A DNA stretch of 64,000 nucleotides from Aquabacterium sp. OR-4 (GTDB lineage Bacteria > Pseudomonadota > Gammaproteobacteria > Burkholderiales > Burkholderiaceae_C): positions 2,170,001 through 2,234,000 of the forward strand of contig NZ_JAOCQD020000002.1 of the NCBI RefSeq assembly GCF_025290835.2, written 5' to 3'. The notes under the pieces were generated by a model. The model saw nothing but the letters and a program-made list of their open reading frames with translations. It was not told the DNA's origin and made no database searches. Below, piece after piece: positions 11,091-46,152 of this stretch. Every line of letters begins with the position of its first letter. Position 1 is the first letter of the stretch. The position numbers were made by a program, and so were the translations under genes.

Positions 11091-11274
11091 CGGCGGTGCC
11101 AGCTTTCACGCCCCGCCACGGGGCGCCCGCGCACCATCTCGCCCCGGCGCGGCCTGCTTGTTGTGGCTGTTGGATGCACGCAAGGCAGGGCCCCGCGCTG
11201 CGGGTCGGGCCCAGTGCATGGGCACCGGCTGCCGCGCCCAACCCGACGTTCAAACACAAGCCAGGAGACAAGCC

Positions 11275-12936
11275 ATGCTTTGGCAGCAGGTGTACGACCC
11301 CTTCCACAACATGTGGATCTCGACCGCGCTGGCGGCCATTCCGGTGGTGGTGATGCTGGTGGCGCTGGGCTTCCTGCACATCAAGGCCCACATCGCCGCC
11401 GGCCTGGGCCTGGTGGCGGCGTTCGGCGTGGCGGTGTGGGGCTACGGCATGCCGGTGGGCCTGGCCGGCAATGCCGCGTTCTACGGCGCGCTGACCGGCC
11501 TGCTGCCGATTGGCTGGATCGTGCTGAACATCATCTTCCTGCAGCAGCTGGCCGAGGGCAACGGCAGCTTCAAGATCCTGCAGGATTCGCTCTCGGGCAT
11601 CACCGCCGACCGGCGCCTGCAGCTGCTGCTGATCGCCTTTTGCTTCGGCGCGTTCTTCGAGGGTGCGGCGGGCTTCGGCACACCGGTGGCCGTGACCGCC
11701 GGCATCCTGATCGGCCTGGGCTTCAGCCCGCTGGCCGCCTCGGGCCTGAGCCTGATCGCCAACACCGCGCCGGTGGCCTTTGGCGCGCTGGGCACGCCGG
11801 TGATCACGCTGGCCAAGGTGCACGGCTACGACCTGATGGAAGTGACGGCGATGATCGGCCGCCAGCTGCCGTTCTTCAGCCTGCTGGTGCCGTTCTGGCT
11901 GATCTGGGCCTTTGCCGGGCGCAAGGCCATGTGGGAGGTGTGGCCGGCCATCCTGGTGACGGGCCTGAGCTTTGCCATCCCGCAGTACCTGGTGAGCAAC
12001 TTCATCGGCCCCGAGCTGGTGGACATCATCGCCGCGCTGGTGAGCATGGTGTGCCTGGTGGGCTTCCTGAAGTTCTGGCAGCCGAAGAAGATCTGGACCT
12101 CGCCCAGCCTGAAGGGCCATGAGAGCGACGGCGGCACGGCCAAGCCGGCCACGGTGATCGTCCAGCACAGCCCGCAGGCCCTGCTGCGTGCCTGGACGCC
12201 CTGGCTGATCCTGACCGTGGCGGTGTTCGTGTGGGGCCTGCCGGCGGTGAAGAGCGCGCTCAACGACATCTGGGCGCCCAAGTTCCCGATCGGCGGCCTG
12301 CACAACCTGATCGAGAAGGTGCCGCCGGTGGTGCCCACGCCGCACAAGGAGGCCGCGGTGTACGTGCTCAACGGCTTGTCGGCCACCGGCACCGGCATCC
12401 TGCTGTCGGCGGTGGTGGGGGCGCTGGTGATGGGCTACGGCCTGGGCGACATCGTGCGCACCTTCGGCCGCACGCTGTGGCTGGTGCGCACCTCGCTGCT
12501 GACCATCGTGCTGATGCTGGCGCTCGGCACGCTCACCCGCTTCTCGGGCACCGACACCACGCTGGGCCTGGCCTTTGCCGGCACCGGCGTGCTGTACCCC
12601 TTCTTCGGCACGCTGATGGGCTGGATCGGCGTGGCCATGACCGGCTCGGACACGGCCAGCAACGTGCTGTTCGGCGGCATGCAGAAGGTGGCGGCCGAGC
12701 AGCTGGGGCTGAGCCCCAACCTGATGGGAGCGGCCAACTCCTCGGGTGGGGTGATGGGCAAGATGATCGATGCGCAGTCGATCGTGGTGGCCAGCACCGC
12801 CACCCGCTGGTTCAACCACGAAGGCGACATCCTGCGCTATGTGTTCTTCCACTCGGTGGCCCTGGCCTGCCTGGTGGGCCTGTTCGTGACGCTGCAGGCG
12901 TATGTGTGGCCGTTCACCTTGATGGTGATCCACTGA
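11275..12936 (+). CDS. lctP: L-lactate/glycolate permease (LctP family)
   Basis: A 553-residue inner-membrane permease with 12 or more hydrophobic helices, of the LctP/GlcA family that imports lactate and glycolate with protons. Family blocks visible include FCFGAFFEGAAGFGTPVAV, NTAPVAFGALGTPVI and GSDTASNVLFGGMQ. The ATG at 11275 has AGGAG 9 bases upstream. The length matches LctP (about 550). The glcDEF dehydrogenase genes follow 660 bases downstream on the same strand, after a repeat element, so uptake and oxidation of 2-hydroxy acids appear to be grouped. The upstream LysR gene is a possible regulator. Confidence 0.92.
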   Translation: MLWQQVYDPFHNMWISTALAAIPVVVMLVALGFLHIKAHIAAGLGLVAAFGVAVWGYGMPVGLAGNAAFYGALTGLLPIGWIVLNIIFLQQLAEGNGSFKILQDSLSGITADRRLQLLLIAFCFGAFFEGAAGFGTPVAVTAGILIGLGFSPLAASGLSLIANTAPVAFGALGTPVITLAKVHGYDLMEVTAMIGRQLPFFSLLVPFWLIWAFAGRKAMWEVWPAILVTGLSFAIPQYLVSNFIGPELVDIIAALVSMVCLVGFLKFWQPKKIWTSPSLKGHESDGGTAKPATVIVQHSPQALLRAWTPWLILTVAVFVWGLPAVKSALNDIWAPKFPIGGLHNLIEKVPPVVPTPHKEAAVYVLNGLSATGTGILLSAVVGALVMGYGLGDIVRTFGRTLWLVRTSLLTIVLMLALGTLTRFSGTDTTLGLAFAGTGVLYPFFGTLMGWIGVAMTGSDTASNVLFGGMQKVAAEQLGLSPNLMGAANSSGGVMGKMIDAQSIVVASTATRWFNHEGDILRYVFFHSVALACLVGLFVTLQAYVWPFTLMVIH

Positions 12937-12973: not shown

Positions 12974-13420
12974 GGTTTCCCATGGCTCGTTGCAGCGCGC
13001 CGGGGGTTCGCCCCGGCGGGCGACATGGGCTTGGCATGGGACACATGGCCGCCGATGGCATGGACACTCATCTGTGAAGGCTCTGGCAGCGGACGCTGCC
13101 ATGCCATTGACCGCGCGCTGCGCTCAAGGGCAGAACTGGGGTCAAGGCCATGCCATGGACCAAGCCCTTCCCACACCACGCTGCGCCCGCAAGTCTTGAC
13201 CGGGGGGCCCGCGCGCGTGGACCGGCTACAACTTTCTCCGGCTGGCTATGTTCGAGCCCGCGGGGCGGGCGAGGCGCCCGCCTCGATGCACCAAACAAAA
13301 TGCTCAGTGGTGTCGGAAAGTTGGGATGCGCTTTCTTTGCCTACTTTCTTTTCGCAAAAAGAAAGTAGGTCGCCCGCCGGGGCGAACACCCGGCGCGCTG
13401 CAACGAACCCTGCGACACCC
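12974..13420 (+). repeat. Composite intergenic repeat, copy A (447 bp, inverted ends)
   Basis: Fills most of the 660-base gap between lctP and glcD. The left end (12974-13023) and right end (13369-13420) are imperfect inverted copies of each other (GTCGCCCGCCGGGGCGAA to CCGGCGCGCTGCAA). Inside, in order: module M1 (about 13024-13090, containing GCCGCCGATGGCATGG and CTCATCTGTGAAGGCTCTGG), a variable stretch, module M2 (about 13169-13235, containing CCGCAAGTCTTGACCGGG), then a unit of about 170 bases with a GC stem and the hairpin at 13340. The same modules recur in mirror orientation at 42459-43076. No plausible gene is inside it. Confidence 0.85.
13340..13369. repeat. 13-bp-stem hairpin of repeat copy A
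   Basis: CCTACTTTCTTTT, loop CGCA, AAAAGAAAGTAGG: a perfect 13-bp stem with a 4-base loop. It is the AT-rich core of the repeat and stands out in this GC-rich genome. It resembles a terminator but has no T-run beyond the stem. Confidence 0.85.
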
Positions 13421-13597: not shown

Positions 13598-15130
13598 ATG
13601 AACGCCCCGACACCCGCCCTGGCCCTGACGGCCACCGCGGCCCCCACCGACAGCCCCGACCGTGCCGCCCGCGCCGAGCGCCAGCGCGAGGTGGTGGCCG
13701 CGCTGGCGCGCCAGCTGCCGGCCCATGCGCTGCTGTGGCAGGCCGAGGACACCGTGCCCTACGAGTGCGACGGCCTCACCGCCTACCGCGAGCGGCCGCT
13801 GGTGGTGGCCCTGCCCGAAACCGAAGACCAGGTGGCCGCCGTGCTGCGCGCCTGCCATGCGCTGCAGGTGCCGGTGGTGGCCCGCGGCGCCGGCACGGGT
13901 CTCTTCGGCGGCGCCATGCCGCATGCGCTGGGCGTGACGCTGGCACTGGCCAAGTTCAACCGCATCGTCAAGGTCGATCCGGTCAGCCGCACGGCGGTGG
14001 TGCAGTGCGGCGTGCGCAACCTGGCCATCAGCGAGGCGGCGGCGCGTTTCGGCCTGTACTACGCGCCCGACCCCAGCAGCCAGATCGCCTGCACCATCGG
14101 CGGCAACGTGGCCGAAAACTCCGGCGGCGTGCACTGCCTGAAGTACGGCCTCACGGTGCACAACGTGCTCAAGGTGCGCGGCTACACGGTGGAGGGCGAG
14201 GCCATCGAGTTTGGCGGCGAGGCGCTCGACGCGCCGGGCCTCGACCTGCTGGCGGTGATGGTGGGCAGCGAGGGCATGCTGGCGGTGATCACCGAGGTCA
14301 CGGTCAAGCTCACGCCCAAGCCGCAGGTGGCGCGCTGCATCATGGCCAGCTTCGACGACATCCGCAAAGCCGGCGACGCGGTGGCCGCGGTGATCGCCGC
14401 CGGCATCATCCCGGCCGGGCTGGAGATGATGGACAAGCCGATGACCGCCGCGGTGGAAGACTTCGTGCACGCCGGCTACGACCTGAGCGCCGAGGCCATC
14501 CTGCTGTGCGAGAGCGACGGCACGCCCGAGGAGGTGGAAGAAGAGATCGGCCGCATGCTGGCGGTGCTGCAACGCTGCGGTGCCACCCAGCTCACGGTCA
14601 GCGAGAACGAGGCGCAGCGGCTGAAGTTCTGGAGCGGGCGCAAGAACGCCTTCCCCGCCAGCGGCCGCATCAGCCCCGACTACATGTGCATGGACAGCAC
14701 CATCCCGCGCAAGCGCCTGGCCGACATCCTGATCGCCATTGCCGAGATGGAGAAGAAGTACCAGCTGCGCTGCTGCAACGTGTTCCATGCCGGCGATGGC
14801 AACCTGCACCCGCTGATCCTGTTCGATGCGAACGACCCCGACCAGATGCACCGCTGCGAGCTGTTCGGCGCCGACATCCTGGAGACCAGCGTGGCCATGG
14901 GCGGCACCGTCACCGGCGAGCACGGCGTGGGGGTGGAAAAGCTCAGCAGCATGTGCGTGCAGTTCAGCGCTGAAGAGCGCGAGCAGATGCTGGCGCTCAA
15001 GCACGCCTTCGACCCGCAGGGCACGCTGAACCCCGGCAAGGTGATCCCCACGCTGCACCGCTGCGCCGAGTACGGCCGCATGCATGTGAAGAAGGGGCTG
15101 CTGCCCTTCCCTGAACTGGAAAGGTTCTGA
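13598..15130 (+). CDS. glcD: Glycolate oxidase subunit GlcD (FAD-linked)
   Basis: A 510-residue FAD-linked oxidase of the GlcD/D-lactate dehydrogenase family, the catalytic subunit that oxidises glycolate to glyoxylate with GlcE and GlcF. The PP-loop FAD domain (about residues 50-230) shows VPVVARGAGTGLFGGA and TIGGNVAENSGGVHCLKYG. The C-terminal part has FHAGDGNLHPLILF and TGEHGVGVEK, typical of the family. The start has AGGAG about 8 bases upstream. It overlaps nothing, and glcE follows after 2 bases, so the two are co-translated. D-lactate is a possible alternative substrate given the permease upstream. Confidence 0.93.
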   Translation: MNAPTPALALTATAAPTDSPDRAARAERQREVVAALARQLPAHALLWQAEDTVPYECDGLTAYRERPLVVALPETEDQVAAVLRACHALQVPVVARGAGTGLFGGAMPHALGVTLALAKFNRIVKVDPVSRTAVVQCGVRNLAISEAAARFGLYYAPDPSSQIACTIGGNVAENSGGVHCLKYGLTVHNVLKVRGYTVEGEAIEFGGEALDAPGLDLLAVMVGSEGMLAVITEVTVKLTPKPQVARCIMASFDDIRKAGDAVAAVIAAGIIPAGLEMMDKPMTAAVEDFVHAGYDLSAEAILLCESDGTPEEVEEEIGRMLAVLQRCGATQLTVSENEAQRLKFWSGRKNAFPASGRISPDYMCMDSTIPRKRLADILIAIAEMEKKYQLRCCNVFHAGDGNLHPLILFDANDPDQMHRCELFGADILETSVAMGGTVTGEHGVGVEKLSSMCVQFSAEEREQMLALKHAFDPQGTLNPGKVIPTLHRCAEYGRMHVKKGLLPFPELERF

Positions 15131-40908: not shown

Positions 40909-42408
<1,500 letters not shown>

Positions 42409-42510
42409 GTGTTTGCGGCCCTTCCGTCGGGCCGCCAGTTCTTCCCGACCGGTGGGCCGGGTGTTCCCATGGCTCCTTGCAGCGCGCCGGGATTTCGCCC
42501 CGGCGGGCGA

Positions 42511-42544
42511 CCTACTTTCTCTTTCAGGCGAAAGAGAAAGTAGG
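42511..42544. repeat. 15-bp-stem hairpin, left arm of repeat copy B
   Basis: CCTACTTTCTCTTTC, loop AGGC, GAAAGAGAAAGTAGG: a perfect 15-bp stem. Compared with the other two copies, a T-to-C change on one side is matched by an A-to-G change on the other, which keeps the pair. Confidence 0.85.
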
Positions 42545-42719
42545 CAAAGAGAAGCGCCTTCCAAACTTTCCGACACCACTGAGCATCTTGCTTGGTGCAT
42601 CGAGGCGGGCGCCTCGCCCGCCCCGCGGGCTCGAACATAGCCAGCCGGATGCAGGTGTAGCCGGTCCCCGCGCGCGGGCCCCCCGGTCAAGACTTGCGGG
42701 CGCAGCGTGGTGTGGGCAG

Positions 42720-42766
42720 GTCTTGGTCTTGGTCTTGGTTTTGGTCAGTGCCAGTGCCAGTGCCAG
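42720..42766 (+). repeat. Hexanucleotide repeats inside copy B
   Basis: About four units of GGTCTT are followed by three units of CAGTGC. This is the variable stretch between modules M2 and M1 and is absent from copy A, which suggests slippage growth. Confidence 0.7.
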
Positions 42767-42994
42767 GCCAACGCCCTTGCTCATGGCCCAGGCACTCTGT
42801 CGGTGGCACGGCCTGCCCACTTGCGGCGAGCAGCCAGAGCCTTCACAGATGAGCGGCCATGCCATCGGCGGCAACGTTTCCCAAGCCAAGCCCTGAGTCG
42901 GCAGCCTGTTCGAGCCCGCCGGGCGGGCGAGGCACCCGCCCCGATGATCGAGAAGCAGAACGGCGGTGTCGGAAAGTTCAATGCGCTTTCTTTG

Positions 42995-43024
42995 CCTACT
43001 TTCTTTTCGCGAAAAGAAAGTAGG
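42995..43024. repeat. Perfect 30-bp palindrome, right arm of repeat copy B
   Basis: CCTACTTTCTTTTCG followed by its exact reverse complement CGAAAAGAAAGTAGG, with no unpaired base. Confidence 0.88.
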
Positions 43025-43150
43025 TCGCCCGCCGGGGCGAACACCCGGCGCGCTGCAAGGAGCCATGGGAACACCCCAGCACCCGCCACCCATCCACCGC
43101 AGACCACAGACCACAGACCACAGTCTGCAATCCGCAACCAGCAGTCCGCA

Positions 43151-44566
43151 TCAGTGCTGGTGATGCCCCCCAGCCGGCTTGCGCACCTGAACCTCGGCCC
43201 CCGCCGCCCCGGCAGCCACCCCGCCAGCGGGCACCGCAACCGCCGCCGAAGCCGCCGCCGGCAGCGCACCGGTCCATTCGTATGGCCGCGTGCCGGCCGG
43301 CGCCTCGTACCAGCCGGGATCGCTGTAGTCGCCTGGTTTCTGCCCCCGCCGCACCTTCAGCACGCTGAACATGCCGCCCATCGCCAGCGGCCCGAACGGC
43401 CCCTGGCCGGTCATCATCGGTGCGGTGTTCTCGGGCAGCGGCATCTCCATCTCGGCCATCTCGTGCATGCCGTGCTCGCCCATGGCCATGTAGTCGGGGA
43501 TCAGCTTGCCCAGGCGCTCGGCCAGGTCGCGCTGCGGCACGCCGATCATCGTGGGCACGTTGTGGCCCATGGCGTTCATGGTGTGGTGGCTCTTGTGGCA
43601 GTGCAGCGCCCAGTCGCCCTCGGCGTCGGCGATGAACTCGATCTGCCGCATCTGGCCCACGCCGATGTCGGTGGTCACCTCGGGCCAGCGCGCGCTGCGT
43701 GGCACCGGGCCGCCGTCGGTGCCGGTCACCATGAACTCGTGGCCGTGCAGGTGGATCGGGTGGTTGGTCATGGTCAGGTTGCCGATGCGCAGGCGCACGC
43801 GGTCGCCCAGGCGCACGTTCAGGCTGTCGATGCCGGGAAAGATGCGGCTGTTCCAGGCCCACAGGTTGAAGTCGAGCATGGTCATCACCTTGGGCGTGGC
43901 GCTGCCGGGCTCGATGTCGAAGGCGTTGAGCAGAAAGCAGAAGTCGCGGTCGACCGGCTCGATCAGCGGATGCCGGCCCTTCGGGTGGGTGATCCACAGG
44001 CCCTGCAGGCCCATGGCCATCTGCACCATCTCGTCGGCATGCGGGTGGTACATGAAGGTGCCCGGCCGCTGCGCGACGAACTCGTAGACGAAGGTCTTGC
44101 CCGGCGGGATCACCGGCTGGGTGAGCCCGGCCACGCCGTCCATGCCGTTGGGCAGGCGCTGGCCATGCCAGTGCACGGCCGTGGGCTCGGGCAGGCGGTT
44201 GGTGACGAACAGGCGCACGCGGTCGCCCTCCACCACCTCGATGGTCGGGCCGGGGCTCTGGCCGTTGTAACCCCACAGCCGGGCGGTGAAGCCGGGCGTC
44301 ATCTCGCGGCGCACGGGTTCGGCCACCAGATGGAACTCCTTGACGCCCTGGTTCATGCGCCAGGGCAGGGTCCAGCCGTTGAGCGTGACCACCGGGTTGT
44401 AGGGGCGGCCGTCGTGCGGGCGCAGCGGCGGCTGGGTGGCCGCGCTGGCTTGTTGATGGGCCTCGGGCAGCGCGGCCAGCGCGCTGCGGGGCACGGCCAG
44501 GGTGCTGGCGGCCAGCGCAGTGGCGGCGCCGCCGCTGCGGCCGAGAAACAGGCGTCGGGAAACCAT
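43151..44566 (-). CDS. Multicopper oxidase, Tat-exported
   Basis: A 471-residue multicopper oxidase. A Tat signal (SRRLFLG, then an Ala-rich core) sends the folded enzyme to the periplasm. Copper ligand motifs are complete: HWHG near residue 130, HPH near 173, HPIHLHGH near 270 and HCHKSHH near 323. A Met/His-rich stretch (MAMGEHGMHEMAEMEMP, about 355-375) and a His tail would bind extra copper. This fits oxidation of Cu(I) to less toxic Cu(II). The start at 44566 has GGAG 10 bases upstream. It is the last gene of a three-gene operon with TolC and a Cys/His-rich protein. Confidence 0.9.
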   Translation of the reverse strand: MVSRRLFLGRSGGAATALAASTLAVPRSALAALPEAHQQASAATQPPLRPHDGRPYNPVVTLNGWTLPWRMNQGVKEFHLVAEPVRREMTPGFTARLWGYNGQSPGPTIEVVEGDRVRLFVTNRLPEPTAVHWHGQRLPNGMDGVAGLTQPVIPPGKTFVYEFVAQRPGTFMYHPHADEMVQMAMGLQGLWITHPKGRHPLIEPVDRDFCFLLNAFDIEPGSATPKVMTMLDFNLWAWNSRIFPGIDSLNVRLGDRVRLRIGNLTMTNHPIHLHGHEFMVTGTDGGPVPRSARWPEVTTDIGVGQMRQIEFIADAEGDWALHCHKSHHTMNAMGHNVPTMIGVPQRDLAERLGKLIPDYMAMGEHGMHEMAEMEMPLPENTAPMMTGQGPFGPLAMGGMFSVLKVRRGQKPGDYSDPGWYEAPAGTRPYEWTGALPAAASAAVAVPAGGVAAGAAGAEVQVRKPAGGHHQH

Positions 44567-44691
44567 GGGGTTCGCTCCGGATGGGTGTTGGGTTCTGGGC
44601 GCCATCGCCGGCAGCCTGGGGAGGCGGTGGGGGGGGATGGCTTCGGGCTGGATTCGGGCTGGGCGTGGGCTGGGCGCGGCAGGGGCCGCGG

Positions 44692-46152
44692 TCAATGGCC
44701 CGCCGCGTCGGGCGTGGCAGCGGGCACGGCAGCGGCCGCGCTGGCGCCCGTTGCCGAGGCCAGCATGGGCCGGCCCACGCGGGCTGCGTCCAGCTCGATG
44801 TCGGCCAGCCAGAAATCGCGCTGGGCTTCGAGGGCGGCGCTCACGCCGGCGATCTGCGCACGCGCATCGGCCAGCAGCTCGAACACGCCGACCAGCATGC
44901 CGTTGTAGCGCAGCAGCATCTCCTGGCCGATGCGCGCCTTCAGCGGCACCAGGGCGTCGCGGTGGTGGCGGGCGATGTCCCAGGCGCTGCGGTAGTGGCC
45001 CCAGGCCTCGTGCAGCTCGCTGCGCGCATCCTGCGCCACGGCGGCCACGCGCAGCACGGCCTGGCGCTGGCGGTGCTCGGCGGCGGCCAGGCGCGCGTCG
45101 CCGCTGTCAAAGATCGGCAGCTCCAGGCTCAGTTCGAAGCCGCGCTGCGTCGGCGCCTCGTTGCTGCCGTTGTGCACCACGCCCAGCTCGAGCACGTTGA
45201 GCCAGCGCGTGGCTTGGGCCAGACCCAGGGTGCCCGACAAGGCCTCGGCCTCGGCGCGCGCGGCCTGCAGGTCCAGGCGCTCGTCCAGCGCGGCGCGGGC
45301 CAGGTCGGGCAGCGCGCGCGCCTGGGCCGGCAGCGGCGGCAGGCGCTCGGGCAGTTGCAGCTGCTGGCGCTGCGCGGCGTCCAGCGCCAGCAGGCGCAGC
45401 AGGCGCTCGCGGCTGGCGTCGCGCTGCTGCGTGGCGCGGGCCAGGCCCAGTTGCGCATCGGCATGAAAGGCCTGCTCGCGCGCACGCTGCAGGGCCGACC
45501 AGTTGCCGGCCTGCTGCATGCGCCGCGCCAGTTCGGCGCCGGCATCGGCGGCATCGAGCACTTGGCGGGCGTACAGCAGCTGCTCCTGGGCGGCCACCGC
45601 GCGCACCCAGGCGCGGCGGGTGTCGGCGGCATGGGCCAGCAGATCGGCCGCCACCTGGGCCTGCAGCTGGGCCTGCTGGCGGCGGCCGGCCTCGCGCAGC
45701 CAGGGCTGGGCCAGCCAGCGCGCCAGATCCACATGCAGGCCGCGCTCGTACTCACGCTCGTCGCCACGCAGCAGGCGCGCAAAGCTGACGCCGGGGTTGG
45801 GCAGACGCGTGGCCTGCACCGCCCGGGCATCGGCAATGGCCAGGTCGTGCAGGCGGGCGCGCAGGCCGCGGTGCTGAACCAGCGCCAGCTGCACCGCGGC
45901 CTCGGCCGTCAGCGGCCGGGCCAGCAAGGCCTGGGCACGCTCGGCGATGGCCGCCGCCTCGCCGTCGGGCGCTATGGCCGCTGGCGCCAGGGCCGGCAGC
46001 TCGGCGCCGGTGTGGCGGCGCACGGTGTCGGCCACCGGGCCCAGGCCGGCATCGGGGGCCAGCGTGGCGCAGCCGCTGAGCAGGCCGATGGCAGCCAGGC
46101 AGCCCAGGGTGGCCCAGGGGCCCGGACGGGAGATGGAAGGGGATCGACGCAT
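44692..46152 (-). CDS. TolC-family outer-membrane efflux lipoprotein
   Basis: A 486-residue TolC-family protein. The signal peptide ends in the lipobox LLSGC (Cys near residue 28). The rest is long Ala/Gln/Arg-rich coiled-coil helices in two repeats, with PNPGVSFARLL and FELSLELPIFDSG as the typical beta-strand segments. Such proteins form the outer-membrane channel of heavy-metal (CusC-like) or other efflux pumps. No inner-membrane pump or adaptor gene is next to it, so it must use a pump encoded elsewhere. It begins 99 bases after the small Cys/His-rich gene and the oxidase follows 125 bases later. Confidence 0.88.
   Translation of the reverse strand: MRRSPSISRPGPWATLGCLAAIGLLSGCATLAPDAGLGPVADTVRRHTGAELPALAPAAIAPDGEAAAIAERAQALLARPLTAEAAVQLALVQHRGLRARLHDLAIADARAVQATRLPNPGVSFARLLRGDEREYERGLHVDLARWLAQPWLREAGRRQQAQLQAQVAADLLAHAADTRRAWVRAVAAQEQLLYARQVLDAADAGAELARRMQQAGNWSALQRAREQAFHADAQLGLARATQQRDASRERLLRLLALDAAQRQQLQLPERLPPLPAQARALPDLARAALDERLDLQAARAEAEALSGTLGLAQATRWLNVLELGVVHNGSNEAPTQRGFELSLELPIFDSGDARLAAAEHRQRQAVLRVAAVAQDARSELHEAWGHYRSAWDIARHHRDALVPLKARIGQEMLLRYNGMLVGVFELLADARAQIAGVSAALEAQRDFWLADIELDAARVGRPMLASATGASAAAAVPAATPDAAGH

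What the first reader, a model, noticed from the sequence alone, without database searches (positions are those of the whole stretch)
42459..43076. A mobile-looking, non-coding element with 52-bp inverted ends and conserved internal modules
The element has near-identical terminal inverted repeats, two arms each with a hairpin, and two internal modules (M1, M2). The second copy at 12974-13420 keeps the order end-M1-M2-arm-end in mirror orientation. Order is conserved although the spacer between the modules differs (83 versus about 116 bases). That is more than a random cluster of palindromes. It could be a miniature inverted-repeat element moved by a transposase elsewhere, a mosaic of smaller REP-like units, or an RNA gene.
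Basis: seen in the sequence. Interest (0 to 1): 0.72.

Follow-up and report, generated by a model that had tools for sequence, protein, structure and literature searches.

The report
Paired-hairpin dispersed repeat without genes
Between two genes sits one of about nine copies of a gene-free DNA element whose two mirror-image ends fold into paired hairpins; relatives in related bacteria keep the same design, and a few hold single foreign genes, which suggests a little-described kind of passenger mobile element.

Summary
The element at 42459-43076 has 65-nt inverted ends (95%), two hairpins per end, inner inverted arms and two internal modules. The same genome holds nine loci with it; module order is kept in 9 of 9. 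The end motif occurs in 28 of 120 sampled genomes of the family (at least three look like chance), and 56 of 60 neighbouring end pairs face inward. Hairpin stems vary in sequence but stay paired. The second window copy is missing at the lldP-glcD site in the 4 relatives where I found both flanks close together, and copies in one relative share an outer edge against unrelated flanks. So it has spread. I found no target duplication above control, no transposase between the ends, no link to Y1 transposases, two plasmid records and no phage record. Seven relatives' elements hold 0.6-1.9 kb inserts, five with plausible, different genes; one insert ends in a site 84% alike to one beside that genome's integron integrase. 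Best reading: a non-autonomous element moved in trans by an unidentified enzyme acting on folded ends, REPIN-like in behaviour but filed in no tested family. New variant of a known kind.

The parts
42459..43076 (.). Copy 1 of the element, terminal repeat to terminal repeat
42459..42523 (+). Left terminal inverted repeat, 65 nt
43012..43076 (-). Right terminal inverted repeat, 65 nt
42486..42510 (+). Hairpin H1 of the left end (TCGCCC..GGGCGA at 42495-42510, followed by a T-rich stretch)
42511..42544 (+). Hairpin H2 of the left end, 15-bp perfect stem
42995..43024 (-). Hairpin H2 of the right end, 15-bp perfect stem
43025..43049 (-). Hairpin H1 of the right end
42598..42637 (+). Inner arm, left
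42907..42946 (-). Inner arm, right
42685..42705 (+). Word inside module M1
42719..42770 (.). Six-base tandem repeats GGTCTT and CAGTGC between M1 and M2
42833..42872 (+). Word inside module M2
12974..13420 (-). Copy 2, mirror orientation, one arm shortened
40909..42408 (+). Flanking gene: FGGY-family kinase, glpK-like
43151..44695 (-). Flanking gene: multicopper oxidase
11158..12936 (+). Gene before copy 2; lldP-like lactate permease (name recalled from the sequence, no family search run)
13598..15130 (+). Gene after copy 2; glcD-like FAD-linked oxidase (name recalled from the sequence, no family search run)

Best explanation
Copy 1 belongs to a chromosomal family of gene-free, dispersed elements made of two inward-facing ends, each a pair of hairpins (H1, H2) followed by an inner arm, around a subfamily-specific core. 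The family spreads by being copied or moved in trans by an enzyme that it does not encode. That enzyme most likely recognises the folded form of the ends, as RAYT transposases do with REPINs. Copies are found mostly after the stop codon of a neighbour, where H1 plus the T-rich stretch may also end transcription from either side. Shown: family, fixed order, fixed orientation, stem pairing kept despite sequence change, presence/absence between species, common outer edges in one relative. Inferred: movement by a trans-acting enzyme, recognition of folded ends, the terminator role.
For: Nine loci in the genome with fixed module order. Inward-facing ends in 56 of 60 neighbouring pairs, none outward. 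Forty distinct H2 stems 97.3% Watson-Crick against 57.7% (maximum 66.2%) with permuted 3' arms; best-hairpin score 10.2 against 1.9 in shuffled sequence. Alternative paired H1 stems in 20 ends of G156/G158. Site without the element in 4 of 4 relatives where both lldP-glcD flanks were found close together and in G157 at a G051 site. Common outer edge with unrelated flanks in 14 of 16 distinct uncut G009 ends; 11 of 12 places of that edge in G009 lie by an H1. Few divergent-gene sites: 1 of 34 against 9 of 58 background pairs.
Against: No target duplication beyond control, though REPIN-like movement need not make one. No enzyme identified; Y1 transposase genes are as common without as with the motif and lie beside other repeats in the four loci I read. 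Copies in this genome are 76-93% identical, so none is demonstrably recent. An element at the same G051/G158 site differs strongly, which could mean old vertical descent. Stems were picked by a hairpin finder, which favours pairing.
Confidence: 0.55

Rival explanations
1. A classical MITE: a deletion derivative of an insertion sequence, moved by a DDE transposase that binds double-stranded terminal repeats.
For: Multi-copy, gene-free, inverted ends, empty site in relatives.
Against: Of 55 pairs, 42% show a flank match of 3 nt or more against 43% in swapped pairs (edges are uncertain outside G009). No pair that I read encloses a transposase, and 11 of 12 places of the G009 outer edge lead to an H1, the twelfth lying in coding-looking DNA.
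Confidence: 0.2
2. A host-kept 3'-end element (terminator, RNA stabiliser or chromosome-structure site) that spread long ago and is now maintained by selection and homogenised by recombination between arms.
For: Sites after stop codons and few divergent sites; covarying hairpins; terminator-like sites at both ends (3 found, shuffles 0.7 +/- 1.0); slightly greater left-right likeness within than between elements.
Against: Patchy presence: 28 of 120 genomes and absence at the matching sites of relatives. The terminator score is weak and the T-rich stretch starts several bases after the stem.
Confidence: 0.17
3. A docking platform for integron cassettes and other single genes, with the folded core as recombination site.
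For: Inserts of 0.6-1.9 kb between arms in seven relatives' elements; one insert ends in 75 bp 84% identical to a site beside the integron integrase of the same genome.
Against: No insert in any of the nine copies of this genome. Only one insert matched the integron stretches I compared. Folding of the two candidate attC sites was no better than shuffles.
Confidence: 0.07
4. A local duplication or chance cluster of palindromes.
For: Two copies lie in one 64-kb window.
Against: Nine loci on three contigs of this genome and carriers in many genera; fold z -22.7.
Confidence: 0.01

Closest known systems
REPIN / BIME with RAYT transposase (PMC8049555, passages read)
   Same: Two inverted hairpin-bearing halves, intergenic, chromosomal, able to fold back, non-autonomous.
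   Different: About 400-740 bp between ends with two hairpins each and conserved core modules; no REP tag seen; no RAYT gene flanked by these ends was found.
MITE (review PMC10969869, passages read)
   Same: Gene-free, multi-copy, inverted terminal repeats, strong fold.
   Different: No target duplication above control and no autonomous partner found.
Mobile insertion cassette (concept recalled; one example, PMC5444012, seen only as search listing and start of abstract)
   Same: Some relatives hold a passenger gene between inverted arms and no transposase.
   Different: The window copy has no gene; the ends match no insertion sequence that I could test.
BRE, beta-proteobacterial repeat element (PMC3110155, passages read)
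   Same: Repeat of about 90 bp in Bordetella and Comamonadaceae chromosomes, sometimes in tandem; our end unit is of similar size and is doubled in G141.
   Different: Described as single or tandem units, not inverted pairs with a core; its letters are not in the text I could read, so identity is open.
CALIN, cassette clusters without integrase (PMC8618304, passages read)
   Same: One G022 element holds two cassette-like ORFs away from the integrase; off-target insertion by a distant integrase is one proposed origin of CALINs.
   Different: CALINs are not defined by inverted hairpin arms; for the other inserts no attC was shown.

Membership tests
MITE | Terminal inverted repeats, no transposase gene, many copies | tested here: met
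MITE | Target-site duplication | tested here: not met
   23 of 55 pairs with k of 3 or more (42%) against 43% in swapped pairs; edges uncertain and a few pairs doubtful
MITE | Related autonomous element with the same ends | tested here: inconclusive
   none among the pairs read or by the G009 outer edge; gene-content association not possible without whole genomes
REPIN/BIME | Two inverted palindromic units forming one foldable unit | tested here: met
REPIN/BIME | GTAG or CGTC tag beside the palindrome | not tested
   no tag seen by eye beside H1; no systematic test
REPIN/BIME | RAYT (Y1) gene flanked by, or co-occurring with, the repeats | tested here: not met
   19 of 24 genomes counted as carriers v 19 of 22 counted as non-carriers have PF01797; none of the 30 returned Y1 loci holds H1 within 2 substitutions
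Mobile insertion cassette | Passenger gene between inverted repeats in place of a transposase | tested here: not met
   not met for the window copy; seen in relatives
BRE | Sequence identity with the published repeat | not testable with these tools
   sequence only in figure and supplement, which are not held
Integron cassette / CALIN | attC sites | tested here: inconclusive
   one relative's cargo has a site 84% like a site beside intI, but folding is no better than shuffles; the window copy was not scanned for attC
Rfam RNA families | Match at gathering score | tested here: not met
   none in the window

The most novel reading that the evidence does not exclude
The family is a cassette carrier without an enzyme of its own: hairpin-armed platforms scattered over the chromosome whose folded core is a docking site for single genes, integron cassettes included, so that a genome can keep cassettes at many loci far from its integrase.
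Probability: 0.12. Interest if true: 0.8.

Novelty: new variant of a known kind. Interest (0 to 1): 0.55.

Why it matters
A repeat spread over several genera with covarying hairpin ends and no visible enzyme poses a testable question: what moves it? If the ends are read as folded DNA, it adds a large two-hairpin design to the few known systems that work this way (recalled: IS200/IS605, REPINs, integron attC). The cargo-bearing relatives would make it a route by which low-GC accessory genes and integron cassettes enter core-gene neighbourhoods. My nine paper searches listed no description of the paired form; they cover an open-access library only, by keyword, and subscription journals are mostly missing from it.

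Tried and rejected
Target-site duplications: 55 pairs against swapped controls, no excess; the 55 include a few doubtful or repeated pairs, such as one of 1937 bp in L120 and the doubled ends of L134. A mobilising Y1 transposase: no association. An earlier count gave 20/24 and 18/22; the recount is 19/24 and 19/22. The labels are imperfect: G155 was counted as a carrier on match number alone, and G060, counted as a non-carrier, later proved to hold the arm word. Insertion into an older palindrome, which would give locus-specific outer repeats: in the two larger sets (G000, G051) within-element likeness is only slightly above between-element; it is clearer in G100 and G018, three elements each. 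Plasmid or phage carriage: one plasmid record for the window element, two of 72,556 for a relative's end, no phage record, no viral contig for one exact pattern. Empty site at glpK: relatives' downstream regions show no element by eye, but the neighbours differ, so there is no clean junction. Elements flanking the integron of this genome: two lie about 7 and 26 kb from one integrase, on the side away from the cassette-like genes; my attC-like scan printed no site there or in G022, although G022 does have one by similarity, so that scan is too strict and its silence says little. In some searches I read minus-strand loci in the wrong orientation; repeat these.

Full report
What is there. The element at 42459-43076 lies between the stop codon of a glpK-like gene (FGGY kinase, 40909-42408) and the end of a multicopper oxidase gene on the other strand (43151-44695). 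Its terminal inverted repeats are 65 nt and 95% complementary. Each end holds hairpin H1 (GCCGGG..TCGCCCCGGCGGGCGA, in which two possible hairpins overlap), hairpin H2 (15-bp perfect stem) and, further in, an arm of 40 nt. Between the arms lie module M1, six-base repeats and module M2. The whole folds far more strongly than shuffles. The left end alone folds as DNA into the two local hairpins with z near -7 on either strand.

Copies in the same genome. The exact word TCGCCCCGGCGGGCGA occurs 17 times in the genome. These fall into nine loci, eight with two ends and one with one, on three contigs; a further fragment lies at C2:1396772 (which scored 40 of 81 first-look candidates). The order end, P, M1, M2, P, end holds in 9 of 9 copies: seven are complete, one lacks an end and copy 2 lacks one inner arm. 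Pairwise identities over the aligned parts are 76-93%. The spacer between M1 and M2 holds six-base repeats in several copies, with different units and numbers; one copy has 18 units.

Relatives. The exact word was found in 28 of 120 genomes of the same family, own genome included, with one hit of the reversed control. Hits in at least three of these (G008, G075, G119) lack a good second hairpin and look like chance. Positive genomes hold from 1 to 72 exact words. Among 60 distinct neighbouring end pairs under 1 kb apart in the loci then held, 56 face inward, 2 are both forward, 2 both reverse, none outward. A subfamily arm word gave 12 of 399 genomes and 58 stretches of named contigs: Rhodoferax, Hylemonella, Curvibacter, Polaromonas, bins named only Burkholderiaceae, beta proteobacterium or Gammaproteobacteria, and one Natronolimnohabitans contig that is probably chance.

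Structure is what is kept. Between genomes, and often between the two ends of one element, the H2 stem changes sequence but stays paired. Forty distinct ten-pair stems from 28 genomes are 97.3% Watson-Crick; permuting their 3' arms 1000 times gives a mean of 57.7% and a maximum of 66.2%. A hairpin finder chose those stems and only scores of 8 or more were kept, so the shuffled-sequence control on all ends is the safer one: mean score 10.2 against 1.9. In 20 ends of G156 and G158, chosen by arm similarity, the H1 stem itself has other forms: 17 of a TCCGCC type, two TCGCCC, one CTGCCC, mostly still paired. The base-paired form therefore seems to matter, as single-stranded DNA, cruciform or RNA; the data do not separate these.

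Evidence for spread. Copy 2 lies between the stop codon at 12936 and the start codon at 13598. In one search, four relatives have both flanks close together (G002, G005, G008, G009) and all four lack the element; 80 to 185 bp separate the aligned flanks. G016 has the flanks 4.8 kb apart with other DNA between, not read; in others I saw one flank, or flanks on different contigs. At a G051 site between two convergent stop codons, G157 has about 80 bp and no element, G155 is rearranged, G156 has other DNA after the left flank, and G158 has a divergent copy. In G009, 14 of 16 distinct uncut ends share an outer edge, mostly about 74 bp outside H1, with unrelated DNA beyond; the two ends of one locus do not. 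Of 12 places of that edge in G009, 11 lie by an H1 and one, with three mismatches, lies in coding-looking DNA. Against recent movement, no two copies in this genome are near identical.

What was not found. Of 55 pairs, 23 show a flank match of 3 nt or more, 42%, against 43% in swapped pairs. No pair of ends that I read encloses a transposase. Y1 transposase genes occur in 19 of 24 genomes counted as carriers and 19 of 22 counted as non-carriers. On plasmids there are two records of 72,556, one a 2.5-Mb Variovorax replicon; on phages none of 50,697.

Where it sits. With a crude gene caller, 34 sites in G000 and G051 gave 13 convergent, 20 tandem and 1 divergent neighbour pair; 58 background pairs gave 10, 39 and 9. 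Several G051 ends lie 19-50 bp from a called stop codon. On either strand the first hairpin met on entering the element is followed by a T-rich stretch, which a consensus scan calls terminator-like at both ends (3 hits in the region against 0.7 +/- 1.0). I take this as a hint only.

Cargo in relatives. One subfamily has a central palindrome (ACAAGGACGCGCCATGGCGCGTCCTTGT and paired variants): 52 distinct occurrences in the held loci, 50 with the inner-arm word in the same locus; many of these loci had been fetched by arm words, so part of that is selection. Of nine distinct inner-arm pairs, three are 123-167 bp long and six 656-1647 bp; a seventh long element is L178. The seven lie in four genomes. 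Six cores measured have GC 0.47-0.53 against 0.59-0.70 in the usable flanks. Five hold plausible ORFs, all different: SLFN_AlbA_2 with a RecG-like C-terminal domain, MORN repeats, a 125-aa ORF with a weak, below-cut-off Trypco2 match, a 298-aa unknown, and two unknown ORFs in tandem. In L250 and L257 I see no convincing gene. The two-ORF insert in G022 ends in 75 bp that are 84% identical to a site behind the first ORF beside the integron integrase of that genome. In that one case the insert looks like integron cassettes. Folding of the two candidate sites did not exceed shuffles, and the other inserts showed no similarity to the integron stretches I compared. Integron integrases over the cut-off occur in 9 of 18 genomes searched, all of them carriers, so I have no non-carrier comparison.

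Interpretation. A dispersed, non-autonomous element with fixed architecture and structure-conserved ends is well supported. That a trans-acting enzyme moves it by reading folded ends is my inference, by analogy with REPINs (PMC8049555, passages), and is not shown. I do not file it as a MITE, REPIN or mobile insertion cassette, because for each of these a defining feature was tested and not met for the window copy.

Noticed in passing
window 42719-42770; L005, L006: The M1-M2 spacer holds six-base tandem repeats whose unit and number differ between copies (18 units in L005; three arrays in L006), possible variable-number markers.
   Followed up: partly
L106-L124 and L001-L009, flanks: DNA outside the left end is rich in G and T and outside the right end in A and C, often with short tandem repeats.
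   Followed up: no
L208, L221, L222, L224: Single-copy Y1 (RAYT-like) genes lie beside another repeat, GGGGTCAGA..., not beside this element.
   Followed up: no
L160, L162, L163: glpK of G018, G020 and G013 matches in two pieces in one open frame, as if short extra coding stretches had been inserted.
   Followed up: no
L134, L135, L136 (G141): End units of roughly 80-95 bp are doubled in tandem.
   Followed up: no
G000:C2:1091192-1092145 and C2:594463-595389: The genome of the window has two integron integrases over the NCBIfam cut-off; beside the first lie small cassette-like ORFs, one PIN-like by eye.
   Followed up: partly
L179 4058-4222 and G047:C33:9244-9268: In G022 and G047 an element lies close to a XerC/D-like recombinase gene (partial TIGR02249 hits at G022:C9:4579-5385 and G047:C33:9520-10326), perhaps the same ancestral site.
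   Followed up: no
L320: The arm word occurs once in a contig labelled Natronolimnohabitans; chance or a mislabelled contig.
   Followed up: no
L269, L270, L276, L284, L321, outside the ends: A second small palindrome of the type GCTATTGAATTTATAGC lies outside several ends.
   Followed up: no
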